Below are positions 2,527 through 48,780 of a stretch of 64,000 nt of DNA, one piece after another; position 1 is the stretch's first letter, and the number at the start of each line of letters is the position of its first letter. This DNA comes from Ruminococcus sp. (GTDB lineage Bacteria; Bacillota; Clostridia; Oscillospirales; Acutalibacteraceae). The translations under genes were made by a program, and so were the position numbers. Below the pieces are notes generated by a model, which was not told where the DNA came from, searched no databases, and was given only the letters and a program-made list of their open reading frames with translations. Location: the NCBI GenBank assembly GCA_017457155.1, contig JAFTHZ010000034.1, positions 1 through 64,000 of the forward strand. Direction: 5' to 3'.

Positions 2527-2762
2527 AAAAACTGCTTTTATCTTTTATTCGTTTCTACAAAAAGCACATCTCCATACATACGCCTGCTTCGTGTAAATAT
2601 TATCCGACCTGTTCTCAGTACGGATATGAGGCGATAGAGAGATTCGGTGCCTTTAAGGGTACCGCTATGACTATATGGAGAATCTTGCGGTGTAACCCTT
2701 TTTCAAAGGGTGGGTATGACCCTGTACCGCAAAAAAAACAAAAGACCCGAAAGAAAGGTTAA
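2523..2762 (+). CDS. yidD: Membrane protein insertion efficiency factor YidD
   Basis: A small inner-face membrane-associated protein that helps YidC-dependent insertion. The 79-aa product has the conserved Cys-rich core [15 protein letters not shown] and the [14 protein letters not shown] segment of the family, with a basic tail. It starts inside the rnpA stop (4-base overlap) and is followed at once by yidC. Normal length. Confidence 0.95.
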
Positions 2763-2766
2763 GCTT

Positions 2767-3678
2767 ATGAATTTTATCGGAGGCATTTTCGGTTATATAC
2801 TTTGGCTCTGCTATGAGCTGGTTCGTAACTATGGCCTTGCTATCTTCATTTTTACTATTATCGCAAAGCTCATCCTCTTCCCCAGTTCCATCAAACAGCA
2901 GAAGACTATGGCAGGTAATGCCCGTCTTCAGGCAAAAATGACAGAGCTTCGTGAAAAATACGGAAACAACAGAGAAAAGCTTAACGAAGAAACCCAGAAA
3001 TTATATGCAAAAGAGGGTGTCAGCCCCTATAGCGGCTGTCTTTCTACTTTACTTCCGATGTTTATTATGATCGGAGTTTTCTATGCAGTTGCTTACCCTC
3101 TCACAAATACTCTGCATCTGGACAAGGCAATGGTCACAGAGGCACAGAAAGCACTGGTTGCAATTCCCGGAATCAATGTGAGTCCCTCTGCTATGTATGG
3201 CGGAGAGATTGATATTCTCAGATATTTCAGCAGCTTTGAGTCTATACAGGCTTGCTTTGAAGGCGCAAGACTCTCTGTAGCAGAAATAAAGGATTTTGCA
3301 ACATCATTTAATTTTACAGGATTGAATCTGCTTGAAATTCCTTCACAAAAAGGTTTTTCACTCTATCTTCTCTTCCCTGTTCTGTGCTTTGTAACTTCTG
3401 TTGCATCACAGTATTTTATGCAGAAATTAAACGGTACAGCAAACTCTCAGCAGGGATGTATGAAGGCAATGATTCTGTTCCTTCCCCTTTTCTCTGCTTA
3501 TCTTGCATATACAGTTCCCGCAGCTGTTGGTTTTTATTGGATCTGCAGCACAGTACTGGGTTTTGTACAGTCCGTAATTATGTTCAAGTATTTCGGACCC
3601 GGAATGATGGTTGCCCGTTCAGAGGCAGCCCGAGTTGCACTGCTTGAGAAGCAGGAGGCAGGAGTTAAGCACCTTTGA
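2767..3678 (+). CDS. yidC: Membrane protein insertase YidC/OxaA
   Basis: Inserts and folds membrane proteins, alone or with SecYEG. About 303 aa, the Gram-positive short form. Visible are a first hydrophobic helix, the cytoplasmic basic hairpin (about 50-90), the conserved helix beginning YSGCLSTLLPMF, and two late hydrophobic segments ending in FYWICSTVLG. No lipobox Cys is seen in the N-terminal region, unlike Bacillus SpoIIIJ. The open frame extends 19 codons upstream into yidD, but the ATG at 2767 places the first membrane segment at the N terminus. A second, divergent YidC domain occurs at 23.2-25.4 kb in a fusion protein. Confidence 0.94.
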   Translation: MNFIGGIFGYILWLCYELVRNYGLAIFIFTIIAKLILFPSSIKQQKTMAGNARLQAKMTELREKYGNNREKLNEETQKLYAKEGVSPYSGCLSTLLPMFIMIGVFYAVAYPLTNTLHLDKAMVTEAQKALVAIPGINVSPSAMYGGEIDILRYFSSFESIQACFEGARLSVAEIKDFATSFNFTGLNLLEIPSQKGFSLYLLFPVLCFVTSVASQYFMQKLNGTANSQQGCMKAMILFLPLFSAYLAYTVPAAVGFYWICSTVLGFVQSVIMFKYFGPGMMVARSEAARVALLEKQEAGVKHL

Positions 3679-21803: not shown

Positions 21804-21837
21804 AAAAAGCTTTCCCGAAAAAATCAGGAAAGCTTTT
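21804..21837. terminator. Terminator after the LicC-like gene
   Basis: The stem AAAAGCTTTCC / GGAAAGCTTTT has an 11-base loop, with a T-rich tail on minus. It lies between the LicC-like gene and the S-component promoter. Confidence 0.75.
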
Positions 21838-21847
21838 GTGTTTATTA

Positions 21848-22738
21848 TCAGACGTCGTAGGTCTTGTCCAGCTGTTTCAGCTCGGAATAGGTGTCTATCT
21901 CGATGATATCCTTGAAGGTACACTCACGGACATGAATCTTGTACTCGTCCTTGAAGTACTTCAGAGCGACCTCGTCCCAGTATCTCTCTTTTCCGCCGGG
22001 AGACTGGTATACCTGCTTGATGTGGCCTACCATCTTTGCTCCGTCCTCTTCGCTCCAGTAAGAGATGCCAAACATGTGGTGGCAGTTTGTGCCGCCTACG
22101 AGGAGCTTCTTGATGACACCTGTCTCTGTGGTCTCAAAGCACCAGTCGTCGGTCTTGTCAACAGGAACACCCAGATAGTTGGTGTGGTACTGGTACTTGG
22201 TAATGAGAGCAGGGTTGTAGAGCACAAGGTCTGCCTCCAGCACGTATGCGTTCTTCAGCAGGTAGCTGGCACATACTGCAGAGGAGATGTTGTTTGCCTC
22301 GTTGTAGAGGGGGTTTTCAATAAACTTGATCATAGGATAGTCATACAGAAGCTGGTCGAACTGCTCTGCAAGATATCCTCTGACTATGTAAATCTCGGTG
22401 ATACCAGCAGCGATAACTGCATCGATAAGGGTTGTGATGATTCTCTTGCCGTTGACACGGATGAGGGGTTTGGGAGTGTTGAGTGTGACAGGAACCATAC
22501 GTGAGCCGAAGCCTGCAGCAATGAAGATAGCACGCTTGACTCTGAAGGGCTCCAGAGCGTCAAGACCTCTGGGGGTTATCACACCATCCTCCAGATATCC
22601 CTGAGCGGTCAGATCTGCGATGCACTTGTTGGCGGTACCCACAGACATCTTTGTGGCAGTAGCGATCTCTCTCTGGGGACGGGAATCCTTCTTGTCAGAA
22701 AGATATACCAGAACATCAAACTGTTTTTTACTAATCAT
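21848..22738 (-). CDS. LicC-like cytidylyltransferase with N-terminal winged helix
   Basis: A probable CTP:phosphocholine cytidylyltransferase that makes an activated head group for a wall polymer. 296 aa: a winged-helix segment at about 1-70 (QREIATATKMSVGTANKCIADL) and a nucleotidyltransferase domain at about 70-290 with the nucleotide loop FIAAGFGSRMVPVTLNTPKPLI, then EADLVLYNP and ISYWSEEDGAKM. The fused winged helix is a known variant, probably binding DNA or effectors. It is followed by a terminator and is downstream of the YidC-glycerophosphotransferase fusion, which suggests a shared polymer. Choline specificity is inferred, not shown. Confidence 0.8.
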   Translation of the reverse strand: MISKKQFDVLVYLSDKKDSRPQREIATATKMSVGTANKCIADLTAQGYLEDGVITPRGLDALEPFRVKRAIFIAAGFGSRMVPVTLNTPKPLIRVNGKRIITTLIDAVIAAGITEIYIVRGYLAEQFDQLLYDYPMIKFIENPLYNEANNISSAVCASYLLKNAYVLEADLVLYNPALITKYQYHTNYLGVPVDKTDDWCFETTETGVIKKLLVGGTNCHHMFGISYWSEEDGAKMVGHIKQVYQSPGGKERYWDEVALKYFKDEYKIHVRECTFKDIIEIDTYSELKQLDKTYDV

Positions 22739-22891: not shown

Positions 22892-23098
22892 TTACTGATC
22901 CTCGCCGAAGCTGCCTGTTACGTCAGCCTCAACCTCTTTGTTCTGGTTTTCGTCAATGCCCAGCTTGTCGCTGATGGACTTCTTTGCACGACGGAAGTAA
23001 ACTGCTACAACGGTACCGATAGTAACAGCAACACCTGCTACGGCTGCGAATACCATAGAAACGCTTGCTGCGTCGATATAAGCTGTAATAATCTGCAT
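22892..23098 (-). CDS. Small single-pass membrane protein
   Basis: 68 aa: a short outside segment, one hydrophobic helix (about 13-36, SMVFAAVAGVAVTIGTVVAV), a basic stop FRRAKK and a charged cytoplasmic tail ending GSFGEDQ. No known family recognised. It is likely a real gene: AGGAGG lies ahead of the ATG and a near-consensus promoter lies 40 bases upstream. It sits between the YidC-glycerophosphotransferase fusion and the LicC-like gene, in the same direction, so it may be an accessory subunit of that machinery; this is inference from position. Confidence 0.7.
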   Translation of the reverse strand: MQIITAYIDAASVSMVFAAVAGVAVTIGTVVAVYFRRAKKSISDKLGIDENQNKEVEADVTGSFGEDQ

Positions 23099-23137: not shown

Positions 23138-23166
23138 ATTATAGTGTAGAAAGCTGTAAAAGTCAA
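23138..23166 (-). promoter_or_regulatory. Promoter of the small membrane protein gene
   Basis: On minus: TTGACT (23161-23166), a 17-base spacer and TATAAT (23138-23143). Confidence 0.8.
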
Positions 23167-23229: not shown

Positions 23230-25356
23230 TTATTTGTTCTGTGCCTTCTGCTCTTTCTGCTTCTGGATAATGCGGGAGTAGATGTATTTTGCACCTGCTG
23301 TGCCGCTGTCACCAACATTGAAGATGTTGCGGTTGAGTGCTTCGGTGATCTGCTTCTCGTACTTTTCGGGATTGCCAAGAAGCTCTTCGACAACAGAGGC
23401 TGTGGTAGAAAGCTCCTCTTTGTCCAGAGACACACCCACCTGCTCCTTCCAGGAGATCTCTGTGGGTACCAGGGGAATCTTTGTGTAGTTGGGGTTGAGG
23501 ACCTTCATGGGGGTGTTGATGAAGAGAGAAGGCTTCTTGGTTGCATATGAGAACTCGTATGCAATACCTGACCAGTCGGTAATCAGCAGGTCGGATTCCC
23601 AGATGGTACGGTTGGAGGAGAAGTCGGTCTCAATGATGAAGTCCTCTCCGTCACAACCCTCGTACTTTCTGATGATAGCGTCCATCTTTGCGGGGAAACG
23701 CTTGATGTACTCGGGGTGAGGACGAAGGATAACTTTGTTGCCCTTGTGCAAGAGTCCCTCCATAAGCTCGTCCAGACAATACTCAAGGATGTTGTCCTCC
23801 TGCCATGACGGTGCCAGGAGAATCTGCTTTTTGTCCTTCTGGACCTTCTCCATAGAGTCGTACATCTTGCACAGGTTGTCAATAAGGCCGAATCCCACGG
23901 GGATGAGGGTCTTCTCGGGGAGCTCGTAGAGCTTCTCGGTAGCGCGGATCTCATCAATCTGATGCTGACCAACACAGAAAATGGTGTCAAAGTGGTCGTA
24001 TGCACCCTCGCGGACACACATGGTGGTGGAGGTGGGACCATGGAAGGTGTAGATGTACTCAACGTCCTTTCTGACGTAGGAACGTTTGATGTAGTACTTC
24101 TCCAGGTCAGGAGTTGTCATCAGAACAATGTCCGCATCCATTCTCATCATAAAGGTGATGATCTTTTTGGGTCCGATATAGTAGGGCTTGATGCGGGGCT
24201 GATCCTTTGCTTTCTCAAAGATAGCGTCCTTGGGATCGTTTGTAACATAGTGTATTGTGATGTTGGTGTTCTTCAGCAGGGATTCGATGATGTTCTCGAA
24301 GTACTTGTAGAATCCGCTTTTCTCTGAATAAATAACCAGCTTTTTGTTTGCGATTTTGTAGAAGCGCTTGTAGTCTGCTTTCTCGCGCTTTGCGTTTTCG
24401 TCACGCTTAAACAGGCCCTTCTTCTTTGTGCCTGCGTCAAGTGCCTCGATGGCTGCCAGCTCCTTGCGGCTATCCTCGAGAGCCTCGTAGTCAACGAACT
24501 TCTTGGGAGAGATGATGGCGTTGAGCAGAAGAAGCTGAAGGACAGCGATGATGTTGCTGACTACCCAGTACAGAGCGATGCCTGCAGGAACAAAGAATCC
24601 GAGATACAGGGAAAGTCCCACAGAAAATGCCATGGTGCCATACTTGTTGCCCTTGCCCTGCTCTGCCTGAAGAACGTTGCTCTTGTTCTGTACAAAGCAC
24701 AAAAACCAGGAAGAGAAGCCTGCGATAATGGGAGCAAGCACATATATCCAGTTGTCAGCCACAGTCTGGCTGGGGGTTGCAGAAAGGTCAAAGCCGAAGA
24801 AGTCCAGGTCGAAGTCGTGGGCATTCTGAATTGCCTTTTTGCCGTCCTCTGTGGCAGCAATCTCAGCAAAAGCCTCGGGATGCTCCTTGATGGCGTGGAT
24901 GGCGCTGATCTCAACGGAGTTGGACTCAAGGTCGATCTCCTCTACCTGAGCGGCAGTGTCGATAACCTGATCGATAACAGCGTCGGGAGTGTTGAAGATG
25001 TATGTGAAAGGCTGATAGATAACAGCAACTACGCCCAGCAGCAGGATGATCTGCACAGCAAGAGGCAGCAAGCTTGCAAAGGGATTGTATTTCTGCTCCT
25101 TGTAAAGCTTGGTCTGTTCCTCACCGATTCGCTCGGTGTCGCCGTAGTACTTAGCCTTCAGTCGATTGATGGCAGGCTGAATCTTGACGATTTTGATGGC
25201 GTTGAGGTGTACCCAGATGCCAACGGGCAGGATGATTATCTTTGTCATGAGAGTGAACAGAGAGATAACCAGACCGTAATCAGCAAGCAGTGAGTGACAC
25301 AGCTGCATGAGAAAACCCAAGGGGGTAGCAATCCAGGAGATTATCATATCGTACAT
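23230..25356 (-). CDS. YidC-like domain fused to CDP-glycerol glycerophosphotransferase (TagF-like)
   Basis: 708 aa. Residues about 1-285 form a YidC/Oxa1-like membrane domain: N-terminal hydrophobic helix, cytoplasmic basic hairpin (IKIVKIQPAINRLKAKYYGD), the YNPFASLLPLAVQ helix, an insertion of about 70 residues and late helices ending IALYWVVSNIIAVLQ. A charged linker (about 285-340) leads to a GT-B glycerophosphotransferase domain (about 340-700) with IYTFHGPTST near 442, RPHPEY near 549 and LLITDWSGIAYEFSY near 595. That domain normally builds teichoic acid-type poly(glycerol phosphate) from CDP-glycerol at the inner membrane face. The YidC part may anchor or position the enzyme. I found no frameshift or internal start that would split it. 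Confidence 0.85.
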   Translation of the reverse strand: MYDMIISWIATPLGFLMQLCHSLLADYGLVISLFTLMTKIIILPVGIWVHLNAIKIVKIQPAINRLKAKYYGDTERIGEEQTKLYKEQKYNPFASLLPLAVQIILLLGVVAVIYQPFTYIFNTPDAVIDQVIDTAAQVEEIDLESNSVEISAIHAIKEHPEAFAEIAATEDGKKAIQNAHDFDLDFFGFDLSATPSQTVADNWIYVLAPIIAGFSSWFLCFVQNKSNVLQAEQGKGNKYGTMAFSVGLSLYLGFFVPAGIALYWVVSNIIAVLQLLLLNAIISPKKFVDYEALEDSRKELAAIEALDAGTKKKGLFKRDENAKREKADYKRFYKIANKKLVIYSEKSGFYKYFENIIESLLKNTNITIHYVTNDPKDAIFEKAKDQPRIKPYYIGPKKIITFMMRMDADIVLMTTPDLEKYYIKRSYVRKDVEYIYTFHGPTSTTMCVREGAYDHFDTIFCVGQHQIDEIRATEKLYELPEKTLIPVGFGLIDNLCKMYDSMEKVQKDKKQILLAPSWQEDNILEYCLDELMEGLLHKGNKVILRPHPEYIKRFPAKMDAIIRKYEGCDGEDFIIETDFSSNRTIWESDLLITDWSGIAYEFSYATKKPSLFINTPMKVLNPNYTKIPLVPTEISWKEQVGVSLDKEELSTTASVVEELLGNPEKYEKQITEALNRNIFNVGDSGTAGAKYIYSRIIQKQKEQKAQNK

Positions 25357-25523: not shown

Positions 25524-25619
25524 GTGACAGAAAAAGCGAAAACAGGATTTTCTCCGACAAAACGTCGGTGGCAGACATAAACCGCAGGAGTGCATCTGTG
25601 GAGAAAGGTGGTGGGCCTT

Positions 25620-26894
25620 GTGAGGAACAGGATCAATAAAATTATAGGAGGTATACTCGGGGTTGCGGTTGCAGCGGCAATGGTGTTTGTGGCGGTTGAC
25701 CCGGGCAGCGTTCCCGAGAAACAGGGCACCACTGCTCCTGTGGAGGAGACAGTACCTGTGACTGCACCCTTACCGGGGGATGTTCCTGTTGCATCGGCGC
25801 CTCCGGGTTCGGTTCTGCTTTCCTTTGTAGGAGACTGCACCCTTGCGTCCGACCTGGGCGAGGTGAAGGAGCCGAATCTGCTGTGGATGGCACAGAACAA
25901 ACCTCACGAATACTTCTTTGAGGGCGTGTATGATGTTCTTTCTAAGGATGATCTGACCTTTGCAAATTGCGAGAATGTGTTTACCGACAGATATCTTTCC
26001 AAGCGCCCCAAGTCAGGCACGGCTTTCTGGTTTACCTCTCCTGCGTCCAACGCGGACATACTGAAGCTTGGTTCGGTGGAGGTTGCGGGTGTTGCAAACA
26101 ACCATACCTACGACTATCGGGAGGACGGTCTGCTTGATACAGTGTCGGCGCTGGAGGCTCAGGGCATCGTGGCAGGACAGGACTGTGTCCCCGTGTATGT
26201 GCAGGCAAAGGATATGACTATCGGAGTGGTGTTCTGTACTATGTGGTCCAGCGGACAGCGCACCGCTATCGAAAATGCCCTGACCAATATGCAGGATAAT
26301 TGTGATTATAGCATTGTTTACTTTCACGGAGGATCAGAGGGCAGACACTATCCCGACAATTATGTGATAGATGTGTGTCGCGGTCTGGCAAACTCAGGAT
26401 TGTGTGACCTGATCGTCGGGTCTCACTCCCATGTGCTTCAGCCTATGGAGGTGGTAAACAACGTTCCTATAGCTTACTCGCTGGGAAACTTCTGTTTTGG
26501 CGGAAACGCCCATCCCGAGAATATGACGGCGATTATGCAGGTTGTGCTTACCGAGACGGACGGGGGCATCACAACAGAGACCTCCTTTGTGCCCTGCTAT
26601 GTACATACAGGCAGCAGGAACAACTACCAGCCTGCGCTGATGACAGATTCAGCGGATAAGGCGGAGGTTATGGCACTGCTCACAGCGAAGGTGGAGAAAC
26701 GTGCCGAGGAGCCGAAGGCATCCTCTTCTACTGCACCCACAGAGCCCACCGCTGCCACACAGCCGTCCACACAGGTGCCTGTTGTCACCGACCCTGTGGC
26801 GACAGATCCTCCACAGCCTGAAACCACCCTCAGTGACCTGCCTGTTCAGGACCAGGTTACTGAAGAGAATGATGACGGATATAATTACTGGTAA
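25620..26894 (+). CDS. CapA-family protein (poly-gamma-glutamate capsule type, metallophosphatase fold)
   Basis: A secreted or membrane-anchored protein of the CapA/PgsA group, which has a calcineurin-like fold; many members have no known function. 424 aa from the GTG at 25620 (AGGTGG eight bases upstream); a GTG ten codons earlier has no spacing for a ribosome binding site. One hydrophobic segment (about 8-28), a Pro/Thr/Val linker, then the CapA domain (about 60-320) with SFVGDCTLASD, VANNHTYDY, IVYFHGGSE and HSHVLQPME. The tail is a Thr/Pro/Asp linker ending near NDDGYNYW. No pgsBC genes accompany it, so capsule synthesis is doubtful; a wall-associated phosphatase-like role fits the region. 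Confidence 0.83.
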   Translation: MRNRINKIIGGILGVAVAAAMVFVAVDPGSVPEKQGTTAPVEETVPVTAPLPGDVPVASAPPGSVLLSFVGDCTLASDLGEVKEPNLLWMAQNKPHEYFFEGVYDVLSKDDLTFANCENVFTDRYLSKRPKSGTAFWFTSPASNADILKLGSVEVAGVANNHTYDYREDGLLDTVSALEAQGIVAGQDCVPVYVQAKDMTIGVVFCTMWSSGQRTAIENALTNMQDNCDYSIVYFHGGSEGRHYPDNYVIDVCRGLANSGLCDLIVGSHSHVLQPMEVVNNVPIAYSLGNFCFGGNAHPENMTAIMQVVLTETDGGITTETSFVPCYVHTGSRNNYQPALMTDSADKAEVMALLTAKVEKRAEEPKASSSTAPTEPTAATQPSTQVPVVTDPVATDPPQPETTLSDLPVQDQVTEENDDGYNYW

Positions 26895-27161: not shown

Positions 27162-27244
27162 GCGATGTATAGTAGATTTGCGTTTGTTGAGGGCCATAAA
27201 ATCTGAGGTTTTTCTATAATTACCGGGTTTTCTTACATTTGTTG

Positions 27245-27273
27245 TTGACGGCATATATATGGGATGATACAAT
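27245..27273 (+). promoter_or_regulatory. Promoter of the dockerin gene
   Basis: TTGACG (27245-27250), a 17-base spacer and TACAAT (27268-27273), about 30 bases before the start codon. Confidence 0.75.
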
Positions 27274-27304
27274 GAAATTGAAGATAAAATGCGGAGGCGA
27301 TTTT

Positions 27305-28360
27305 ATGAAAAAATTCATGTCATTGTTCCTTGCGATTATTATTGTTACAGGTGCGGTCTTCATGGTTTCATTCACAGCTTACGCAGAAGAGGCTGACACC
27401 TCCCCCGTAGCTTATGAAGAGCCAATGCAAAACGTCCTTCTGGATGTGAGCGCTTTGGCTACAGACGACGAAAGCTTCGCTGCCTATATTTGGACCGACA
27501 ACGGTGACGACAGATGGGAGGCTGCCCAGGCAAGCGAAACAGGCTACCATGTTCTCAAAATGCACATGGGCGAGAATGCGGTGTTTGCCCTGATGAATGG
27601 TGACGGAGAGCTTGACTGGTTCTCGGTGAAAAGTCAGACAGAAGACACTCGGTACACAGGAGAATACAACTGTGCAGTCCTCAGCTACTCTGATACTGAG
27701 GGCAGAATGAATGTTGAGTGGACATCTGTTGTGGACAAAACAGACCTGGTTCAGCTATTAGGGGAAGCAGAAGTATATTTGTTTGATGAGGCAAGCAAGT
27801 ATACCTATGAGTCAGTGTTTGAGCTGCAGTGTGCCTATTATGACGCATTGCATCTTCTCAAAGGAAACCCCAAGCAGGCAGGAGTCGATATGGCCACAGA
27901 CAGACTCACAAAAGCAATCCGCGGTCTGATCACAAAGGAAGAGGCGGGCATAGTCGATAAGAGTGATCTGGAGCTTGCTATCAGCACTGCAGTATCCTAC
28001 CAGATGTCTCTTGAAAACTTCACGGCTTCTTCATGGAACTATATGATGCTCAAGCTGGATGAAGCTTACGCAGTTGACATGGATGAGAACGCCAGTCAGA
28101 AAGAAGTGGACTTTGCAGCGCAGGAGCTTTTCGATGCCATTGAGGCACTGGAGAGCGAGGACGAGCAGGTCGGCGATGTGGACGGTGACGGACTTATCAG
28201 CGTCAGAGATGCCACAGAGATTCAGTACTATCTGGCACGACTTGTATATATAGCCCCGAACAGATATGACGATGCGGATGTGAACAGGGACGGAGTGGTC
28301 TCTGTTAAGGACGCCACCATGATTCAGAAGTTCCTTGCAGGCATAATTCCTTCCCTGTAA
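27305..28360 (+). CDS. Secreted dockerin protein with FIVAR-like repeats
   Basis: 351 aa from the ATG at 27305 (GGAGG seven bases upstream). A classic signal peptide ends TAYAEE (cleavage about 26-28). Then comes a beta-rich unknown segment (about 30-150), two FIVAR-like helical repeats (about 155-290) and a type I dockerin with two Ca-binding half-repeats, DVDGDGLISVRDATEIQYYL and DVNRDGVVSVKDATMIQKFL. Dockerins plug into cohesins of a cellulosome scaffold or of a surface protein; no scaffold is in this window. No catalytic domain is recognisable, so it is an attached non-enzymatic component or adhesin. Confidence 0.9.
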   Translation: MKKFMSLFLAIIIVTGAVFMVSFTAYAEEADTSPVAYEEPMQNVLLDVSALATDDESFAAYIWTDNGDDRWEAAQASETGYHVLKMHMGENAVFALMNGDGELDWFSVKSQTEDTRYTGEYNCAVLSYSDTEGRMNVEWTSVVDKTDLVQLLGEAEVYLFDEASKYTYESVFELQCAYYDALHLLKGNPKQAGVDMATDRLTKAIRGLITKEEAGIVDKSDLELAISTAVSYQMSLENFTASSWNYMMLKLDEAYAVDMDENASQKEVDFAAQELFDAIEALESEDEQVGDVDGDGLISVRDATEIQYYLARLVYIAPNRYDDADVNRDGVVSVKDATMIQKFLAGIIPSL

Positions 28361-28494: not shown

Positions 28495-29541
28495 ATGCCC
28501 CTGCAGATAATCAGGCAAGATATTACAAAAATAAGCTGTGACGCTATCGTCAATCCTACGAGCGAGACCCTCACCCCCACAGGCGGAGTGGACCTTGCGG
28601 TGCACAAGGCGGCGGGTAAAAAGCTCCTTGAGGCAGTAAGATCCATAGGTTACGTAAATACAGGTGAGGCAGTCATTACCCCTGCCTTCAGGCTTAAGTC
28701 GGAATATGTCATTCATACCGCCGGCCCTGTGTGGCAGGGCGGAGACCATAACGAAGAAGCGCTGCTTGAGGCTTGCTACAAAAACTCCCTGAATCTTGCA
28801 AAAGAGAACAAATGTCAGAGTGTGGCGATCCCCCTGATTTCTTCGGGAGAATACGGATTCCCCAAGGACAGGGTTCTGAGGGTTGCGCTGGGTGCTATCA
28901 GCGACTTCCTGTTTACCGGCGAGATGATGGTATATCTTGTGGTCTTTGACAGGGACTCTTACTCTTTGGGAGAGAGGCTGCTCGGTCATATCAGGAGTTT
29001 CATCGATGACAATTATGTTAAGATGAACTTTGTCGATCGCCCTCGCTGTGCCGCCTTCCCTCTCCGTCGGGAGAAGCTGAGCGCCCCGCCTATGCCTATG
29101 GCGGCCCGCGTCTGTGCCGTTCCCAAAAATGAACCTCAGGACAAGGACTGTATATGCGAGTCAAAGCCCCCTGATATAGACGACTTCATAAAGCTGGACG
29201 AGGGCTTTGCGCTCAAGCTCCTGAGGTTGATTGACCTGAAGGGGATGGATGATGTTGAGTGCTACAAAAAAGCCAACGTCAGCAAGCAGACCTGGTACAA
29301 AATAATGAACGACAAACACTACAAGCCTAACAAAAAAACCGCAATCTCTTTTGCGGTGGCGCTGGGTCTGAGTCTGACAGAAACTCAGGAGTTGCTGGAG
29401 TCGGTGGGCTTTGTGCTGTCCCACAGCTCCCTGTTTGATGTTATCATTATGTACTGCCTGAGCAACGGCATATACGATGTCTGTGAGATCGATGCCATCC
29501 TGTTCAGTTATGATCAGGAAACTCTGTACTCCAAGCTCTGA
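28495..29541 (+). CDS. Macro-domain protein with C-terminal helix-turn-helix-like domain
   Basis: 348 aa with two parts. Residues about 1-170 are a macro domain (ADP-ribose binding or hydrolysis): CDAIVNPTSETLTPTGGVD, VIHTAGPVW and IPLISSGEYGFP. The middle (about 180-215) is a Pro/Arg linker. Residues about 225-348 are a helical domain with a helix-turn-helix look: YKKANVSKQTWYKIMND, then KKTAISFAVALGLSLTETQELLE. This suggests regulation that senses ADP-ribose or a derivative. GGGAGGGG lies ahead of the ATG. It is flanked by strong hairpins on both sides, so it is a single-gene unit. Confidence 0.85.
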   Translation: MPLQIIRQDITKISCDAIVNPTSETLTPTGGVDLAVHKAAGKKLLEAVRSIGYVNTGEAVITPAFRLKSEYVIHTAGPVWQGGDHNEEALLEACYKNSLNLAKENKCQSVAIPLISSGEYGFPKDRVLRVALGAISDFLFTGEMMVYLVVFDRDSYSLGERLLGHIRSFIDDNYVKMNFVDRPRCAAFPLRREKLSAPPMPMAARVCAVPKNEPQDKDCICESKPPDIDDFIKLDEGFALKLLRLIDLKGMDDVECYKKANVSKQTWYKIMNDKHYKPNKKTAISFAVALGLSLTETQELLESVGFVLSHSSLFDVIIMYCLSNGIYDVCEIDAILFSYDQETLYSKL

Positions 29542-36945: not shown

Positions 36946-39900
36946 TTAGTCTTTGGTGGCCTCGAACAGGTCAGAGTATACGGTGTACAGCTGGCCTGAG
37001 GCATCTGTGTACTGTACCCATGCTCTTGCCATCCAGGTCTCGCCTGAGGCGACGGGTCCGATATAGAATGCGGAGCCGATTGCCTGATCGTCAACCACGA
37101 GTCTGTCGTATACGCTGGAGTCTGTGGTGCCGTGATAGAAGGTTTCTGCCTTGTAGGTGTTTTTATTTGTTGCGATCATACCTGCGCCTACAAACTGCAG
37201 ATTATTCTGATCCTCAGGTACGCACCAGCTGAAGTTCCACTGGCCGTACTCTGTTGCGAGGAAGTTGGTGATTGCAACCAGTACCTGGTAGTCGATCTCG
37301 TCGTCCTCGCCGATAAACACAGCCGCAAGACTCATATCCTCTGAGGGATAGAAGTCATAGACGGTTTCATAGGAGAGAATCTTTTTACCGTCGGTCCAAT
37401 ATGCAAACTTCATTCCCTCCTCGGGAGCGTTTGCGGTGACGGTGGTCTTGCTGTTTGCAAGGTACATGCCGTCCTTGGCGGTGCCGAAGGTTATCTCTCC
37501 GCCTGTGACGGTCAGATTGCAGTAGACCTCCTGTCTCTGCCATACCGGCATAACGGTCACATCTTCTCCAGCTGCAACCTTCTGTGCAATTTCTTCGGCT
37601 GTGTAGTTCCAGCCCATAAAGTCGAATCCTGCTCGCATGGGGTCGAGTGCGGGGAATACAATCTCGTCACCTGCGGCGTAGTACTGGATATCCCAGTACT
37701 GGTCTGCTACGTCATAGTAGAAGTTGACAATGCTCAGTCCCTCAATATCGGTTTTGTACATAGCCTTCAGGTAATCGTTGCCTGAGGTGTAGAAGGTGTA
37801 GGAAAGATCTGTTGAGAGGATCTTATCGTTGGAGGTGTTCAGCCAGCCAAGGAATGGGTTATCGTTAGTGGTGAAAGCGGTGACAGTAACCTTGACACCT
37901 GTCTTTATGTTGGTGTTTTTGTAGGAAGTGCCCTGAGTACGAGCAGCGCCTCCGTCGATGGAGATTCTGAAGCCTGTTCCGCCCGCAACGTCAACCTTCA
38001 GGCTGCCTGTGATAGGAGCTGTTGCTACAGGCTCTGTCACTGCAGGTTCTGTTACTGCAGGCTCTGTTACTGCAGGTTCTGTTACTGCAGGTTCTGTCAC
38101 TGTGGGGTCTGTCACTTCTGGCTCGGATGCAAGGAGAACGCCGTTTTCGTCGAAGGTGTAAGTTTCACCATCGATGACTTGTTCACCTGTGACCATTCTG
38201 CCTTTGTATGTTTCGTCTGTGGGATGGAAGTAGTATGTGTTGCCGTCGATTTCCTTCCAGCCTGTGACCATCTTGCCGTCCTCGGCGGTGTAGTATTTGT
38301 ATCCGGAGGAGGAGTTAGTAATCCAGCCTGTGAGCATCTGGCCGTAGTGATTCTCCATATTGTCCTCAAAGAAGTACCACTCGCCATCAAGTTCTGCCCA
38401 GCCTGTGGTCATCTCTCCTTCCTGGTCAAAGTAGTAGATATAGCCTGTTTTTGGGGATGTAAACCAGCCTGTAACCATAGTGCCGTCGGCGGTGTCAAAG
38501 TAATACCACTTGCTGTCAAAGGTCACGAAGCCTGTCTGTATGGCTCCTGTGGATTCGTCAAAGTAGAAGTACTCTCCGTCCACATACTGGAATCCCTTGA
38601 GAATTTCGCCGTCAGATGCGGTACGGTATACGATTCCGTCAACAGTGATCCAGCCGGTTCTGTGAAGAGCTCTGGAATCTGGGTAGAAATAGTACAGGGA
38701 GCCGTCGATTGTCTGGAAGCCGCTTACTGCGTAACCATTGGCATCCAGATAATATCTTGCACCGGAGAGGGGCTCGTCAATCCATCCTGAATATACAAAT
38801 GTACCATCGCCCATCTGATACTTGAAGCCGTTTTCATCCTGATACCACATACCATTGGTAACAAGTGCACCACTTGAGTCAAAGTAATACCACTTGTTGT
38901 CAATATATCTGTGGCCTGTGAGCATAGCGTTGGTGTTGGGGTCAAGGTAGTAGGTCTTGCCGTTGTCCTCAACCCAACCGCTGACTGCATAGCCGTTTGC
39001 GTCAAGATAGTACCATGCGCTGTTGGCGCTGTCCCAAAGCCAGCCTGCACCTGCAAATGTGCCGTCGGAATACTGATATTTGAGGCCGTAGTCATCCATT
39101 ACCCAGGATGCGCTCAGATTACCTGAGGAGCTTGCAGAGTAACCGTTGAAGCCATAGGTCTTGACGATGGTGGGATAATCCTTATAGCATACATTTGCGT
39201 CAAATGTGCCTGCGTTTGCGATTACATATTCAAAGGTATACTGATACATACCGTACTTCTGGCTGAACTGCGCATCGTATTTGGTGTGGTCCTGGCTGGT
39301 TAAGGGATATGTTACCCAACCTTCGTATTTGCTGCTGATGCCGGAGGAATCTACCCAACCCTGCTCAAACCAGCTTTTGTATGTATACATTCCTGTCAGA
39401 TATCCGCCGGATGCTACTGTGTCAAGGAACGCTGTGCAAATCTGAGCAGAAAGCGTACTTCCTATTCCCTCTTGTGTGGGGTCTTCAAAATCCATGTAGA
39501 TGGGGTATTCAAATTGTTTGCCTGCAATATAACTCAGGCACTTCTGTGCATCGCTTACTGCGCTTGCAGCGTCGAGAGCATAGGAGTAGAAGTATGCTCC
39601 TACATCCAGACCCAGTCGCTTACACTCGTCGTAATACATATCAAACATGGGATCCTCGCCCTTGTTGGTGGATCCGCAACGGATAATTACAAAGTCGATG
39701 CCTGCGGCTTTTACTGCTGCAAGATTAAGTTTAAGGGTGGTCCAGTCGTCTCCGTTGTTCCACTTAGAGATATCAATACCATGAGCCTGAACCACGCCTG
39801 TGCCATCAGCAGGCATTCCGCCCTGATAGCTTGAATATCCTCCACCTACATTAGGCGTTTGTGTATCTTCGATAACAGAGCCTTCTACAAGCACACCATT

Positions 39901-41547
39901 TTTATCAAAGGTACAAGTAGAACCGTTAATATCCACTGTGGTATTCTCTACTCTTGCACCGCTTGAGTCAAAATAGAAATAGTGTCCGTCTTCCTCTACC
40001 CAACCGGTCTGCATAGCACCGCTTGAGTCGGTATAATACCATTTATTGTCAATATTGAGCCATCCTGACAGCAATGCACCACTGTTTGGATCGAAGTAAT
40101 ACCAAGCGTCACCGATCTTCTGCCAGCCTCTTGCAGAGTATCCGTTTGCATCAAGATAATATCTTACATAATTGTTTGTTGCATCATCAAGCCAACAGTT
40201 TGCACCGTAGGTGCCATCTACATAGCGATATCTGTAGCCTGTTCCGTCATATTCCCAAGTACCATCACACAGGTAACCATCGTTATTGAAGTAATACCAT
40301 CTGCCGTCAATATATCTGTGTCCTGTGAGCATTGCGTTGGAGTTGGGATCCAGATAGAAGGTGCCGGTGTCAAGATACAGCCAGCCGTTCTGAGCGTATC
40401 CGTTGGCTCCGATGTAGTACCATGCGTTGTTGTCGGGATCCTGGAGCCAACCCTGAGAAGCATAGGTTCCGTCAGACCACTTATACTTGTAGCCGGTTCC
40501 GTCATATTCCCATGCACCTGAGAGGGCACCGCTTGAATAGAACTGAATGATTCGGCTTGAGTTGTTTTCGACCCAACCGTTAACGGTGCTGCCGTTAACA
40601 TCGGTGAAGGTTCCGTAAAGTCTGTTGTTTGCACCAACCTTGGTGATCTCAAAGACAGAGAATCTGGGGATGGTGGTAGTAGCTGATGTTGCGTATTCGG
40701 AGCTGTAGATATACTTTGCTGCATTTGCAACATAGAGTCCGGGGGTGGGGTTGGCACCGCTGTAATCTACTTTATCTACAGAGCTGTCGGAGATATAGGG
40801 CAGTCTGCCGTATCCGTAGAGATAGGAGCTGGAGAGAGAGTAGCTCTTGAAGTAAACACCGCCGCCGTTGGTCTCAAGACCGGATGCGTCACTTGTGTTG
40901 CCCTCAACTGTGTAGAGCACTCCGTCCTTAACGTACAGGCAGATACCGATATGAGAGGGAGAGGATGAACTCTTGAAGAATACAAGGTCACCGTACTGGG
41001 GGGTATAGGAGCCGCCCATGCCTGCACTGTAGGAGAAGTAGCCTGCGCCCTTGAGCTGGTTTACCCACATTGCACAGCTGATCTCTTTCCATATGTAGTT
41101 ATAATCACCTGAGTGATTACGGCAGAGAGAGCTGTAAGTGGCGTGATTTGTACACCTGGACTGATACAGACACCAGGATACGAAAGATGCACACCAGGGA
41201 TAATCTGAGCCGCCGTAGCCAAGACCCAGGTCACCCATGTTGTAGCTCATCTCAACATAGTTTGCGCTTCCGGAAATTTCACCGGAAAAATAGCCGTTAG
41301 CAGCACCTTCCTGATAGCCAAGCTGGGATAGAGCTATGGCAATGAGGTCAGTCCTGTTGTCGCCTGTGATGGGAACCTGCTGGTAATTGCGGTAGTATCT
41401 TCCCGCGGCGTAGGAGGCAGAAGGGCCTGACTGGGCGCCGTTTCTGTAGACGGCAGCTGAGGCTGGGATAGTGCTCACCGCAAGAGCCGACACTATCATC
41501 AGAAGCGCCAGTATTGCCGCCAGTGTTCTTGTCAGTCTGTTTTTCAC
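36946..41547 (-). CDS. Secreted CHAP + GH25 cell-wall hydrolase with CW-type (choline-binding-like) repeats
   Basis: 1,533 aa, exported: signal peptide about 1-32 (ending IPASAAV). Order: CHAP amidase/endopeptidase domain (about 60-250; catalytic Cys in DYPWCASFVSW, His in PSHIGIC), SH3-like segment (about 270-335), first block of CW repeats (about 345-560; WYYF and GWxxD units), GH25 muramidase (about 585-800; GIDISKWNN and YPIYMDFEDP), second CW block (about 815-1140), a TEPAV linker, and C-terminal Ig/flap-type repeats ending in a domain with ETFYHGTTDSSVYDRLVV. Start GTG at 41547 after AGGAGA. It should cut both the peptide and the glycan of peptidoglycan and hold the wall through its repeats. 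Confidence 0.9.
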   Translation of the reverse strand: MKNRLTRTLAAILALLMIVSALAVSTIPASAAVYRNGAQSGPSASYAAGRYYRNYQQVPITGDNRTDLIAIALSQLGYQEGAANGYFSGEISGSANYVEMSYNMGDLGLGYGGSDYPWCASFVSWCLYQSRCTNHATYSSLCRNHSGDYNYIWKEISCAMWVNQLKGAGYFSYSAGMGGSYTPQYGDLVFFKSSSSPSHIGICLYVKDGVLYTVEGNTSDASGLETNGGGVYFKSYSLSSSYLYGYGRLPYISDSSVDKVDYSGANPTPGLYVANAAKYIYSSEYATSATTTIPRFSVFEITKVGANNRLYGTFTDVNGSTVNGWVENNSSRIIQFYSSGALSGAWEYDGTGYKYKWSDGTYASQGWLQDPDNNAWYYIGANGYAQNGWLYLDTGTFYLDPNSNAMLTGHRYIDGRWYYFNNDGYLCDGTWEYDGTGYRYRYVDGTYGANCWLDDATNNYVRYYLDANGYSARGWQKIGDAWYYFDPNSGALLSGWLNIDNKWYYTDSSGAMQTGWVEEDGHYFYFDSSGARVENTTVDINGSTCTFDKNGVLVEGSVIEDTQTPNVGGGYSSYQGGMPADGTGVVQAHGIDISKWNNGDDWTTLKLNLAAVKAAGIDFVIIRCGSTNKGEDPMFDMYYDECKRLGLDVGAYFYSYALDAASAVSDAQKCLSYIAGKQFEYPIYMDFEDPTQEGIGSTLSAQICTAFLDTVASGGYLTGMYTYKSWFEQGWVDSSGISSKYEGWVTYPLTSQDHTKYDAQFSQKYGMYQYTFEYVIANAGTFDANVCYKDYPTIVKTYGFNGYSASSSGNLSASWVMDDYGLKYQYSDGTFAGAGWLWDSANSAWYYLDANGYAVSGWVEDNGKTYYLDPNTNAMLTGHRYIDNKWYYFDSSGALVTNGMWYQDENGFKYQMGDGTFVYSGWIDEPLSGARYYLDANGYAVSGFQTIDGSLYYFYPDSRALHRTGWITVDGIVYRTASDGEILKGFQYVDGEYFYFDESTGAIQTGFVTFDSKWYYFDTADGTMVTGWFTSPKTGYIYYFDQEGEMTTGWAELDGEWYFFEDNMENHYGQMLTGWITNSSSGYKYYTAEDGKMVTGWKEIDGNTYYFHPTDETYKGRMVTGEQVIDGETYTFDENGVLLASEPEVTDPTVTEPAVTEPAVTEPAVTEPAVTEPVATAPITGSLKVDVAGGTGFRISIDGGAARTQGTSYKNTNIKTGVKVTVTAFTTNDNPFLGWLNTSNDKILSTDLSYTFYTSGNDYLKAMYKTDIEGLSIVNFYYDVADQYWDIQYYAAGDEIVFPALDPMRAGFDFMGWNYTAEEIAQKVAAGEDVTVMPVWQRQEVYCNLTVTGGEITFGTAKDGMYLANSKTTVTANAPEEGMKFAYWTDGKKILSYETVYDFYPSEDMSLAAVFIGEDDEIDYQVLVAITNFLATEYGQWNFSWCVPEDQNNLQFVGAGMIATNKNTYKAETFYHGTTDSSVYDRLVVDDQAIGSAFYIGPVASGETWMARAWVQYTDASGQLYTVYSDLFEATKD
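38023..38115 (-). repeat. 15-bp tandem repeats encoding TEPAV units
   Basis: About five to six near-identical 15-base units on minus encoding Thr-Glu-Pro-Ala-Val in the linker between the second CW block and the C-terminal domains of the lysin. Likely prone to copy-number change. Confidence 0.8.
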
Positions 41548-41838
41548 AGCATATCATCTCCTGAATATAGAATTCTGGGTATCATACATAATTTATATTA
41601 ACATAATTTCCATAATTCGTAAAGTTGTTTACAAATAATTGTTAACTTTTTCTAAACTTTTTCTGTTTTTCACAATTTGAAACGACCGATTCTGTTGGTA
41701 TTAACAAGGGACTTGTATCAAATGATTGCGGCTACACTATAGATAGTATAAGAAAATAAGAACAGCGGCACATTTCCCTGCATAGGAAATGCGCCGCTGT
41801 GGTACTATTCAGTTATCTGTGGGGCTTTACTGCGCGGA
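41548..41838 (-). promoter_or_regulatory. Intergenic region upstream of the lysin gene
   Basis: A 291-base AT-rich gap. It includes the terminator of the giant protein gene (41755-41800). The lysin promoter must lie in 41560-41750; I could not choose between several TAxxxT boxes. No other gene is visible. Confidence 0.3.
41755..41800 (-). terminator. Terminator of the metallophosphoesterase/fibro-slime gene
   Basis: On minus ACAGCGGCGCATTTCC pairs with GGAAATGTGCCGCTGT (one wobble), followed by a T-rich tail. Confidence 0.85.
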
Positions 41839-44800
41839 TTACTCTTCTGCACTCAGATTGTAATCTACGTAGTTGTCGCTGACCACCCACTGACTCTGGC
41901 CATTCTCAACAACTCTCATTGCTGCGAAAGCAAAGAGTCTAAGATTCTCCAGCTGTTTCTTCTCGAAGGTTGTAGTGAACTGAACACGATTCTTGGTTGT
42001 GAGGTAAACCTGATTTGTGTTGTTGCCTGCATCTTCCTTGGTAACAACCTGATACTTGAATCCGTTGGCGATGAGGGTGATATTCTCGCTTGTAACAGAG
42101 AGCTGCTCACTGTCATCGGTGGTCTTTTCGATAGTTACCTCAATCTGCTGGCCGGCTGTGACACCGTAGTTCTGTGCATTCTGGACGATTGTCTGAACGC
42201 CCTCGCGAAGCTGTTCCAGCTGTGCTGCTGTCAAGTTGTCAACATCGAAGCTGTTATTCTTGACATTTACATAGACAATGGCAACATCTTTAATGCCATC
42301 ACCTGATAAAGTAGTATTGCCGCCAATATGGAAGTTATCAGCGTAGCCATATGGATTCATAACAGTGTTGAGACGAACATACTCAATAGGCTTGCCGTTA
42401 GCGCCTGCCTCTGAGTAGTAGTCATACTGGTTACGGCTTACTGTCAGACCCTTGTCGGGCTCACCGATGCCGTATACAGCATAGATTGTCTCATTGCCTG
42501 AAATACGATACATATAGTTGATGTCGGTGGAAGCTATCTGAGTTCCTTCCTCATCAAATGCCCAGTACTGGAAGGTGAGGGTTGTTCCGTCAGACAGGAT
42601 AGCTGTCTTGTCGGTATTTGGTCTGGTGCCTGTGTAGCCGCTCAGGCCGTAGTTTGAGAGGTAAGAGGTATCCTCGTTTACACCTTCGTTTACATTGTTG
42701 TCATCCAGAAGCTCCTCGCCCAGACGCTGGTTGTAGTAGCCTGTGATGATGTTGAAGGTGCCGGTTGCAACATACTTGTCAGTATTGCCGACCTGAGTCA
42801 GAGTGCTTGTGTCTCCATCGGTGAGTCCGTAGACGCTCATAGTGTACTGCTTGGGACAGTTGAACATCCAGGATGTAATGGTCTTGCCGTCGTCGGAGAT
42901 TTCTACCCAGTTCTCGCCGGATTCCTGTACATTACCATACTGGTCGGTATGGTAGGGTGTCTCCTCATACTTCTCTCCTGTGTGGGTGTTGATGAGGTTC
43001 TGCATTCCGGTGACTGCCTGATCCTGACTGAGCCACAGGTAGTAGTCGTCAAGCAGGTTGTTTACCTGACTGGATTTACCGCTCTGCAGAGCCATACCTG
43101 CCTCTGCAATCATACTCTCTGTGTCGTATGCAGTGTGCTCTTCATCGGTGAAGATAATGTCTGAGCCGTAGAAACCGTATGCAAAAGTCTTGGGTTCATC
43201 ACCCATATCAGCGGGAAGTCCGCTGATGACCTCACGGTCGTAGTACTTGATGTTTACAGTTACATATTCGATGGTGTTGACAAATGTAATATTGGTGGTG
43301 TCATTTTCCAGAACAGGGATGTAGGTGCCTGCGGTACAGGAGATCAAATGTTCCTGCTGTGTTGCCATATTTTCTATCTCAGTATCGTTAAGGTAGGTAC
43401 GGATGCCCTTAACCGTGCAGGGATCCGCAATCTCTGTGACTGTGTATTGGGTGGCAACATCCAGATCCTTGAAGAGAGCCTTCTGGCCGCCCTTAATGGT
43501 GAAGGTGTTACCCTGCTTGACGGTCTGGTTGGATGCAACTACTGCGCCTGTGATGATGTCAACGACATCGTAGGTGTAGATACCGCTTGTGAGGACATCG
43601 CCATCCTCGGTGTAGCCTACAATGGAGAAGGTGTAGTCGGAGTTATCCTCTGCGGATAAGTCGTTACCCTCTGAATCCACTACCTGCTTCTCAACCTCAA
43701 ATCCTGAGGAAGGCAGAGTCTCCATGTTGAAGTAGATATCGTTAAATGAACGTGAGCCACCGCGCTCCAGGTAGAAGAACTTGAGTGTGTGACGTGTGCC
43801 GTTTGCGAAGGTGTTGCCCTCGAACATATCCTCGTTGAGGGTTGTGCCTGCAAGGATACTGTTGCTGCCCTCCTGTGCTGCCTCAGCATAAGCTGTCTCG
43901 AATTTCTCTCTGATTGTGGAGGACTCGGAGGTATCGATACCAACCTGGGGATAGCAGGATTCATCAGTGGGATGGGCTACGTTACCTGTTGCAAAGTTGA
44001 TGGTAGCCATCTGTGCGCCGTGAGTACCTGCAACGTTGAGCACCAGAACGTTATCGATATAAACAAGCACGTCGTCGTCACCGGTGAAGTTGAACACCAT
44101 GTCATGAAGATCGCCGTTCATATCGTAAACCTGACCATTGTTTGCAATCTCAAAGTCAAACTCCATGGTCATACCGAACCAGGTGTTTGTCTCCTGGCTG
44201 TTGGGATGATCGGTGCCGGTAGTGTCTGCGTATACATCATTGTAGTATGCAGGGAGATTCGGTGTATCCTGCTGAGAAGATGTGTAACCGGTTCTCTGCT
44301 TTGTGTCGGTCTCATCAGGCCAAACAGGATCAACAAATGAGCCCGTTGTGCTGGCTGTTGTGTAGTCACCGGTCAGATAATCGCTGGTGATGTTGTGACC
44401 GTAGTTAAAGGGCAGGAAGTTTCTGTTGTAGGAGTTGTAGTCACGCAGAGACTTTCTCAGATATCTGTTGTTAAAGAGAGAGTCTTCGCCAAAGGTATCA
44501 AGACGGGTGCTCTTAATAAGAGAATTATAAATATCATGGTAGGTAACGCCTGTCTGAGAATCAGTAAAGCTTGTGTTCTCGTCGTAGTAGTAGTGGTAGT
44601 AAGGTCGGATTACATAGTCATACAGCTGGAAGCGCTGACCCTTGACGGGCTGATAGATGCCTGAGGTGTAGTACTCGGAAGTGTCGAAGTATGCAGCGTT
44701 CATATATGAGCTGTATACCATACCGCCTGTGGATGCTTCCTTGAACATACCTGTGCCGTATGCATCACCTACGTCGTAGCGTACACTCTGGTAGTAACCA

Positions 44801-48639: not shown

Positions 48640-48780
48640 AAAACTCTCAACTCCTAAGAAAAAAGTTATATCTGAAGCAGTCGAATCGTAGGCCCGATAC
48701 GACTGTAGTTTCCGCAAAACTTATTACAGAAAATTATGGGATGGGACATGCACCCAATTATCCCAATTATAATCTATACC

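What the first reader, a model, noticed from the sequence alone, without database searches (positions are those of the whole stretch)
23230..25356. YidC insertase domain fused to a CDP-glycerol glycerophosphotransferase
A full YidC-like membrane domain is followed in the same frame by a TagF-like catalytic domain. Known TagF enzymes bind the membrane through amphipathic helices, not an insertase. The fusion suggests that polymer synthesis is coupled to a membrane insertase fold, perhaps for flipping or anchoring a glycerol-phosphate polymer. The ordinary yidC is present at 2.8 kb.
Basis: partly seen in the sequence, partly recalled or inferred. Interest (0 to 1): 0.8.

Follow-up and report, generated by a model that had tools for sequence, protein, structure and literature searches.

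The report
YidC-like domain in phosphonate headgroup transfer
A gut bacterium carries a protein that joins a membrane-insertase-like domain to a phospho-headgroup transferase, and related bacteria join the same parts in other orders, which suggests an unrecognised machine that moves phosphonate or phosphocholine-like groups across the membrane onto the cell surface.

Summary
The fusion is real: one 708-aa ORF on the minus strand (23230-25356), a five-TM YidC fold plus a TagF-like GT-B domain. It is no error: 82 distinct loci in Clostridia and Bacilli carry it. The CDP-glycerol polymerase reading is not supported. Downstream lie a small TM protein and a LicC/PntC-like cytidylyltransferase; elsewhere the window's genome encodes a complete 2-aminoethylphosphonate (AEP) operon and four LtaS-like "sulfatases". 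In relatives four modules (YidC-like, TagF-like, sulfatase, small YIDP protein) recur in permuted fusions: YidC-TagF, sulfatase-YidC-TagF, small-sulfatase, and YidC-sulfatase with small-TagF. Best reading: the TagF domain loads the AEP group of CMP-AEP (other donors in other species) onto an inner-leaflet lipid, the YidC-like domain lets it cross, and the LtaS-like enzyme passes it to a surface polymer. Modules, permutations and donor pathway are shown by sequence; lipid acceptor, crossing and product are inferred. PMC6697681 calls these later tailoring steps enigmatic, so this makes them testable. Against: one locus lacks YidC, 10 of 19 fusion genomes lack PEP mutase, and nothing is biochemically tested.

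The parts
23230..25356 (-). YidC-TagF fusion gene, 708 aa
24487..25356 (-). YidC-like domain, residues 1-290; 5 predicted TM (24-42, 95-113, 204-222, 244-262, 265-283), acidic loop 114-203, groove Lys39
23251..24354 (-). TagF-like GT-B domain, residues 335-702; H439, RPHP 545-548 and DWS 594-596 invariant in 80 of 80
22892..23098 (-). small membrane protein, 68 aa, one TM, AYID motif; its family is found near 76 of 82 fusions
   Evidence: no Pfam or NCBIfam match
21848..22738 (-). winged-HTH + LicC/PntC-like CTP:phospho(no)amino-alcohol cytidylyltransferase, 296 aa
25409..25437 (-). sigma-70-like promoter TTGACA-17-TATAAT (12 of 12) before the fusion gene
   Evidence: pattern match; 4 sites of 9/12 or better found, 4.3 expected in shuffles
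23138..23166 (-). promoter-like TTGACT-17-TATAAT (11 of 12) before the small gene, so it may be expressed on its own
21805..21837 (-). terminator-like hairpin after the cytidylyltransferase gene
   Evidence: 5 such sites found, 2.8 expected in shuffles

Best explanation
The fusion is the cytoplasm-to-membrane part of a machine that tailors the cell surface with small phospho- or phosphono-headgroups. In this genome PEP becomes phosphonopyruvate (PEP mutase), phosphonoacetaldehyde (decarboxylase) and 2-aminoethylphosphonate (transaminase), all encoded on another contig. The cytidylyltransferase next to the fusion makes CMP-AEP. The TagF-like domain, in the cytoplasm, transfers the AEP group onto a membrane lipid carrier. 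The fused YidC-like domain, with its hydrophilic groove, receives that lipid and lets its polar head cross (lipid scrambling). An LtaS-like transferase (PF00884) outside moves the headgroup from the lipid to a surface polymer through its Thr nucleophile. The small YIDP protein is a structural subunit. Shown by sequence: the modules, their conservation, permuted fusions, gene linkage, catalytic residues, and the AEP pathway. Inferred: CMP-AEP as the donor here, topology, lipid as acceptor, scrambling, hand-over to the LtaS-like enzyme and the final polymer.
For: Permuted fusions of the same four modules: YidC-TagF with separate sulfatase and small gene; sulfatase-YidC-TagF in one 1192-aa ORF (L078); small-sulfatase beside YidC-TagF (L058, L062; L201); YidC-sulfatase (60KD_IMP E 5.8e-22, 3.6e-22, 3.7e-20 in the 3 of 11 scanned; the other 10 are 43-79% identical to the first) with small-TagF (YIDPGTGSMLF at the N-terminus in 12 of 12; 3 more loci). 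Linkage within 6 kb of 82 fusions: small 76, sulfatase 58, an activation gene 49, PEP-mutase-type gene 12, PF00155-type aminotransferase 11, choline kinase 3; in 12 other YidC loci with flanks of up to 6 kb (L089-L100) none of these profiles matched. Window genome: AEP transaminase 468.5 bits (cut-off 360.8), PEP mutase 416.9 (319.55), phosphonopyruvate decarboxylase 468.1 (312.5); only one full-length LicC/PntC match, the one in the window; four sulfatases of this subfamily, E 2.6e-147 or better; no PF01633 choline kinase. The window cytidylyltransferase has Glu where Tde-PntC has Glu104 near the AEP amine; the 7 choline-kinase-linked ones have S, C or V. PEP mutase in 9 of 19 fusion genomes against 19 of 295 of the order sample, 7 of those 19 being fusion genomes; Fisher p 1.7e-6, denominator approximate. 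Sulfatase family: nearest solved chain LtaS (E 4.1e-11); Thr256, Asp219, Asp222, His409, His414, Asp467, His468 invariant in 9 of 9. E. coli YidC scrambles lipids in vitro (PMC10491306).
Against: L200 has TagF-like, two weakly matching sulfatases and a full AEP pathway but no YidC or small protein nearby, so YidC is not always needed. 10 of 19 fusion genomes lack PEP mutase, so AEP is not the general substrate. 33 of 82 fusion loci have no recognised activation gene within 6 kb, and 24 of 82, the window among them, no sulfatase. The groove Lys is equally common in other YidC of relatives (21 of 30, L086 left out), so it is no special signature; in YidC-sulfatase the position is Asn in 11 of 11. 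Specificity residues: the window enzyme has Asp, as LicC, at the second contact (Tde-PntC Glu196), and the NTP-transferase domains fused to PEP mutase have His or Tyr, never Glu, at the first (0 of 10). Only 1 of 12 PEP-mutase genomes without the fusion has the YidC-sulfatase type, so most of them must tailor by other means. No acceptor or product is known.
Confidence: 0.5

Rival explanations
1. The TagF-like domain transfers the headgroup to a lipid-linked oligosaccharide (undecaprenyl-type) in the cytoplasm, and the YidC-like domain only holds or flips that glycolipid; the LtaS-like enzyme acts on something else.
For: TagF-family enzymes act on undecaprenyl-linked acceptors (recalled); some loci hold sugar-metabolism genes by eye, e.g. 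L201.
Against: The physical fusions with the LtaS-like module (L078 triple fusion, YidC-sulfatase) tie both sides into one pathway; LtaS-like enzymes use lipid headgroup donors (recalled).
Confidence: 0.2
2. It is a glycerol-phosphate (teichoic-acid-like) transferase, and the YidC-like domain is just a membrane anchor.
For: PF04464 match above the cut-off; TagF and TarL folds; catalytic His and Asp shared with TagF-family enzymes.
Against: Partner genes are LicC/PntC, PEP mutase, decarboxylase, transaminase or choline kinase; an anchor would not need a YidC fold in two different fusion partners; in a tree of 68 rows (26 of the 82 fusions) the fused TagF domains, with L200 among them, form a set of support 99 apart from other TagF-family proteins.
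Confidence: 0.15
3. The YidC-like domain is a true protein insertase dedicated to one client, such as the small YIDP protein or the LtaS-like enzyme.
For: YidC fold; a small TM protein, a typical kind of YidC client (recalled), is near 76 of 82 fusions.
Against: The small segment is itself fused to TagF or to the sulfatase in relatives, as a subunit would be, and the window's genome has its own yidC.
Confidence: 0.1
4. A chimera or sequencing artefact.
For: Many of the records are metagenome-assembled.
Against: 82 distinct loci, a fused clade of support 100 in a tree of 36 of them, high-confidence model.
Confidence: 0.01

Closest known systems
Pnt / Lic surface tailoring pathway (PntC, LicC; PMC6697681)
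   Same: PEP mutase, decarboxylase, transaminase and LicC/PntC-like activation; complete AEP set in the window genome.
   Different: TagF-like, YidC-like, LtaS-like and small YIDP modules follow the activation step. LicD was not searched for; none of the 8 window proteins scanned matched it, but one ORF in L202 looks like LicD by eye. The paper's main text has 0 mentions of YidC, TagF or sulfatase and its abstract calls the later steps enigmatic.
TagF / TarL (PF04464)
   Same: GT-B fold, catalytic His pair and Asp.
   Different: DWS instead of DYS at the Asp motif, fused YidC domain, different donor genes, separate set in the tree.
YidC / Oxa1 superfamily
   Different: C-terminal transferase domain; paralogue beside the ordinary yidC; own clade, support 100, which also holds the stand-alone L086.
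LtaS / EptA-type phospho-headgroup transferases (PF00884)
   Same: The sulfatase-like partner has LtaS as nearest solved relative and an invariant Thr.
   Different: Distant: the profile match to LtaS (E 4.1e-11) covers only positions 394-507. Linked or fused to YidC and TagF modules.
Caulobacter CPG2 pathway (CpgD; PMC12275187)
   Same: A cytidylyltransferase supplies a CDP-linked headgroup for a lipid (passages read).
   Different: The passages read mention no YidC-like or LtaS-like part.

Membership tests
YidC/Oxa1 superfamily | Sequence profile over curated cut-off | tested here: met
   PF02096 104.6 bits (35); TIGR03592 98.9 (84.3)
YidC/Oxa1 superfamily | Five-TM core fold with a positive groove residue | tested here: met
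YidC/Oxa1 superfamily | Insertase or scramblase activity | not testable with these tools
   needs biochemistry
TagF-like PF04464 | Profile over cut-off and GT-B fold | tested here: met
TagF-like PF04464 | Catalytic His pair and Asp | tested here: met
   80 of 80; same letters in 25, 26 and 26 of 26 other TagF-family rows; that these are catalytic is recalled, with the H444N title of 3l7k as support
TagF glycerophosphotransferase | CDP-glycerol as donor | tested here: inconclusive
   gene context points to CMP-AEP or CDP-choline type donors; no assay
TagF | Amphipathic helices for membrane binding | not tested
   -
PntC/LicC | Full-length match and metal-binding residues | tested here: met
   1jyk E 1e-29; Asp at LicC 107 and Glu at 216 in 26 of 26 of its group
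PntC (AEP-specific) | Glu at both amine-contact positions seen in Tde-PntC | tested here: inconclusive
   Glu at the first, Asp at the second
Pnt (AEP) pathway in the window genome | PEP mutase, decarboxylase, AEP transaminase over curated cut-offs | tested here: met
   contig C14 (L210)
LtaS/EptA-like transferase (partner) | Alkaline-phosphatase-superfamily domain | tested here: met
   PF00884 over the cut-off at 4 places of the window genome, one of them only with its neighbours in the frame
LtaS/EptA-like transferase (partner) | Thr nucleophile | tested here: inconclusive
   Thr256 invariant in 9 of 9, but the LtaS alignment does not cover it

The most novel reading that the evidence does not exclude
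A previously undescribed four-part transmembrane headgroup-transfer machine, in which an insertase-fold (YidC/Oxa1) domain has become a dedicated lipid scramblase or channel between an inner-leaflet headgroup transferase (TagF-like) and an outer-leaflet LtaS-like transferase. It would be the missing transfer step of phosphonate and phosphocholine surface tailoring in these Firmicutes, and an example of the Oxa1 fold used for lipid transport, not protein insertion, in bacteria.
Probability: 0.4. Interest if true: 0.88.

Novelty: new variant of a known kind. Interest (0 to 1): 0.76.

Why it matters
Most bacterial phosphonate biosynthetic capacity goes to cell-surface tailoring, yet the later tailoring steps are called enigmatic (PMC6697681 abstract). 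This gives named candidate enzymes for transfer, membrane crossing and surface attachment, and a concrete system to test whether a YidC fold can serve lipid transport in cells, a property shown for insertases in vitro and in simulation (PMC10491306, passages read).

Tried and rejected
Sequencing error: rejected by conservation. Groove Arg-to-Lys change as a functional switch: rejected, Lys is the commoner residue in other YidC of relatives too. Two separate recruitments of YidC: the tree places the YidC of YidC-sulfatase apart from the fused clade, but an AU test on 34 of the 78 rows does not reject one origin (p 0.256), so I do not claim it. TagF tree: row C_L191 has a very long branch, probably a wrongly chosen frame, and 3 of 71 rows were dropped for length, so sister relations are not claimed. 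Idea that the other PEP-mutase genomes use the YidC-sulfatase type: only 1 of 12 does. Fisher test: 8 of 17 fusion genomes of the order sample against 12 of an assumed 278 (295 minus 17); how many of the 17 were in the 295 is not known (at least one, G392, seems not to be), and relatedness is not corrected for. Small-protein homology to the N-terminus of small-TagF rests on the motif and weak profile hits (2 of 3 loci; none of L131-L142 at the threshold). Sequence profile of small-TagF proteins against PDB and of the whole fusions: no TagF chain at E 0.01; the fold search found it. The local family models were built from the same neighbourhoods that were then counted, so counts describe families first seen there; Pfam, NCBIfam and PDB searches name them independently. 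Flanks differ: 61 of 82 loci have 2 kb or more on both sides; among those small 57, sulfatase 45, activation gene 40. Literature searches: (open-licence library only; seen as listings except the three papers named); no listing shows such a fusion or these modules together.

Full report
OBSERVATION. The ORF at 23230-25356 lies on the minus strand and encodes 708 aa. Pfam finds 60KD_IMP and Glyphos_transf in one frame, both above their cut-offs. The ordinary yidC lies at 2710-3678. A search of 39 genomes (own and relatives) found the same fusion in two more, at 73% and 46% identity. A scan of the 84,980-species collection returned 80 loci, the most a call returns; 66 match both domains (L021-L085 and L088; L029 is cut by its contig end) and 14 match the YidC part only. 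An order-level sample of 394 genomes has 17 with the fusion, the window's included; for three of them the listed match starts inside the YidC part and the full ORF was checked. After removing copies 82 distinct loci remain. In a phylum-level sample it is rare: 2 of 398 genomes, the window's own included, plus one TagF-only relative. Record titles are mostly of gut and rumen Clostridia and Bacilli.

NEIGHBOURS IN THE WINDOW. Downstream on the same strand lie a 68-aa one-TM protein (22892-23098) and a winged-HTH plus LicC-like protein (21848-22738; CTP:phosphocholine cytidylyltransferase 1jyk E 1e-29, the PntC-AEPT protein 6pd1 E 1.6e-12 over residues 67-178; that 6pd1 is the Tde1415 PntC-AEPT of PMC6697681 is recalled). 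The fusion gene and the small gene each have a near-consensus promoter (12 of 12 and 11 of 12 positions). A PGA_cap gene is divergent upstream.

THE FOUR-MODULE SYSTEM. Across 82 fusions, within 6 kb: small protein 76, LtaS-like sulfatase 58, an activation gene 49 (LicC-like 48), PEP-mutase-type gene 12, phosphonopyruvate decarboxylase 7, Fe-alcohol dehydrogenase 9, PF00155-type aminotransferase 11, choline kinase 3. In 12 other YidC loci with flanks of up to 6 kb (L089-L100) none of these profiles matched. The modules also occur fused in other orders: sulfatase-YidC-TagF as a single 1192-aa ORF (L078); small-sulfatase (L058, L062; L201); and a second architecture in which the sulfatase itself starts with a YidC domain (3 of 11 scanned: 60KD_IMP E 5.8e-22, 3.6e-22, 3.7e-20) while the TagF-like protein starts with the small protein's YIDP motif (12 of 12; three more loci). 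Genome G164 holds both architectures (L155, L134). One locus (L200) has TagF and two weakly matching sulfatases with a complete AEP pathway but no YidC and no small protein. The YidC domains of the two architectures fall in separate clades, though one origin is not rejected (AU p 0.256). Groove residue of the second type: Asn 11 of 11.

DONOR. Loci with phosphonate genes above curated cut-offs: L041 PEP mutase 402.1 (cut-off 319.55) and decarboxylase 466.1 (312.5); L200 PEP mutase 402.8 and AEP transaminase 449.1 (360.8). L028, 69% identical to the window protein, has a decarboxylase at 464.9 beside Fe-ADH and PEP mutase-LicC on the opposite strand. Others carry choline kinase (L063, L076, L080) or an NTP transferase fused to a PLP aminotransferase (L056), so the headgroup seems to differ between species. 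In the window's own genome, contig C14 holds AEP transaminase, cytidylyltransferase-PEP mutase and phosphonopyruvate decarboxylase in a row, all three above curated cut-offs, with no LicC match in the 18 kb read; the only full-length LicC/PntC match is the one in the window (next best E 1.7e-8). No PF01633 choline kinase is found. The residue that contacts the AEP amine in Tde-PntC (E104; LicC D105; PMC6697681 section 8) is Glu in the window enzyme. By context it is Glu in 22 of 26 that stand alone (the window's among them), 8 of 8 aminotransferase-fused, 5 of 8 near PEP mutase and 1 of 3 near an aminotransferase gene, but S, C or V in 7 of 7 choline-kinase-linked and His or Tyr in 10 of 10 fused to PEP mutase. 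The second contact (Tde E196, LicC D192) is Asp in the window enzyme, as in LicC. So a primary-amine substrate is suggested, not shown; the PEP-mutase-fused domains do not follow the Glu pattern, perhaps because some make hydroxyethylphosphonate (inference from the Fe-ADH beside several of them). PEP mutase occurs in 9 of 19 fusion genomes and in 19 of 295 genomes of the order, 7 of which are fusion genomes; Fisher p 1.7e-6 with an approximate denominator and no correction for kinship.

OUTSIDE TRANSFERASE. One sulfatase of the window genome was checked and has five TM segments and a long acidic C-terminal part. The nearest solved relative of the family is LtaS (E 4.1e-11, over profile positions 394-507 only). 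One Thr, three Asp and three His at likely active-site positions are invariant in 9 of 9 aligned. The window's genome has four of this subfamily on contigs C31 and C5, none beside the fusion.

MECHANISM. The simplest scheme that uses all four modules: the TagF domain takes the headgroup from CMP-AEP (or CDP-choline-like donors in other species) and places it on a membrane lipid on the inner side; the YidC-like domain lets the headgroup lipid cross; the LtaS-like enzyme transfers the headgroup to a surface polymer; the small protein holds the parts together. E. coli YidC scrambles phospholipids in vitro and Oxa1 members do so in simulation (PMC10491306, a preprint; passages read). Shown here: parts, linkage, permuted fusion, conserved residues, donor pathway. 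Inferred: lipid acceptor, scrambling by this domain, hand-over, product.

COMPARISON AND NOVELTY. It works like the Pnt/Lic tailoring pathway with a new transfer module. PMC6697681 (abstract, sections 6 and 8 and one word search read) describes activation and calls later steps enigmatic; its main text has no mention of YidC, TagF or sulfatase. Full-text searches listed no description of such a fusion in the open-licence library; subscription papers are not covered. I rate it a new variant of a known kind, with a bolder reading given as the novel case.

Noticed in passing
25590-26894 +: PGA_cap (CapA-like, PF09587) gene divergent from the fusion; the same in 8 other fusion loci, 9 of 82 with the window, and none of the 9 has a sulfatase beside the fusion.
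   Followed up: partly
L086:5980-6669: A stand-alone YidC of the fused clade (57% identical in its best segment) without TagF, among genes that look like polysaccharide synthesis by eye; it groups with a fusion YidC in the tree.
   Followed up: partly
L200:3694-12724: Complete AEP pathway with TagF-like protein and two sulfatases but no YidC or small protein; perhaps a minimal version of the system.
   Followed up: partly
L202:6900-7691: An ORF that looks like a LicD phosphotransferase by eye, just before a YidC-sulfatase gene; not scanned against a library.
   Followed up: no
L134 and L155 (genome G164): One genome holds both architectures, YidC-TagF and YidC-sulfatase with small-TagF.
   Followed up: no
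L052:2624-5707: A sulfatase partner fused to an acyltransferase-3 domain (PF01757).
   Followed up: no
L056:4123-5976: LicC-like NTP transferase fused to a PLP aminotransferase (PF00155); could make and activate phosphoethanolamine from phosphoserine (inference).
   Followed up: no
28495-29541 +: Macro domain followed by a helix-turn-helix-like C-terminal region (one search shows only the Macro domain; the rest is by eye).
   Followed up: no
27239-28360 +: Secreted-looking protein with a type I dockerin.
   Followed up: no
36946-48717 -: Two very long ORFs (1533 and 2292 aa) in the same window, not examined.
   Followed up: no
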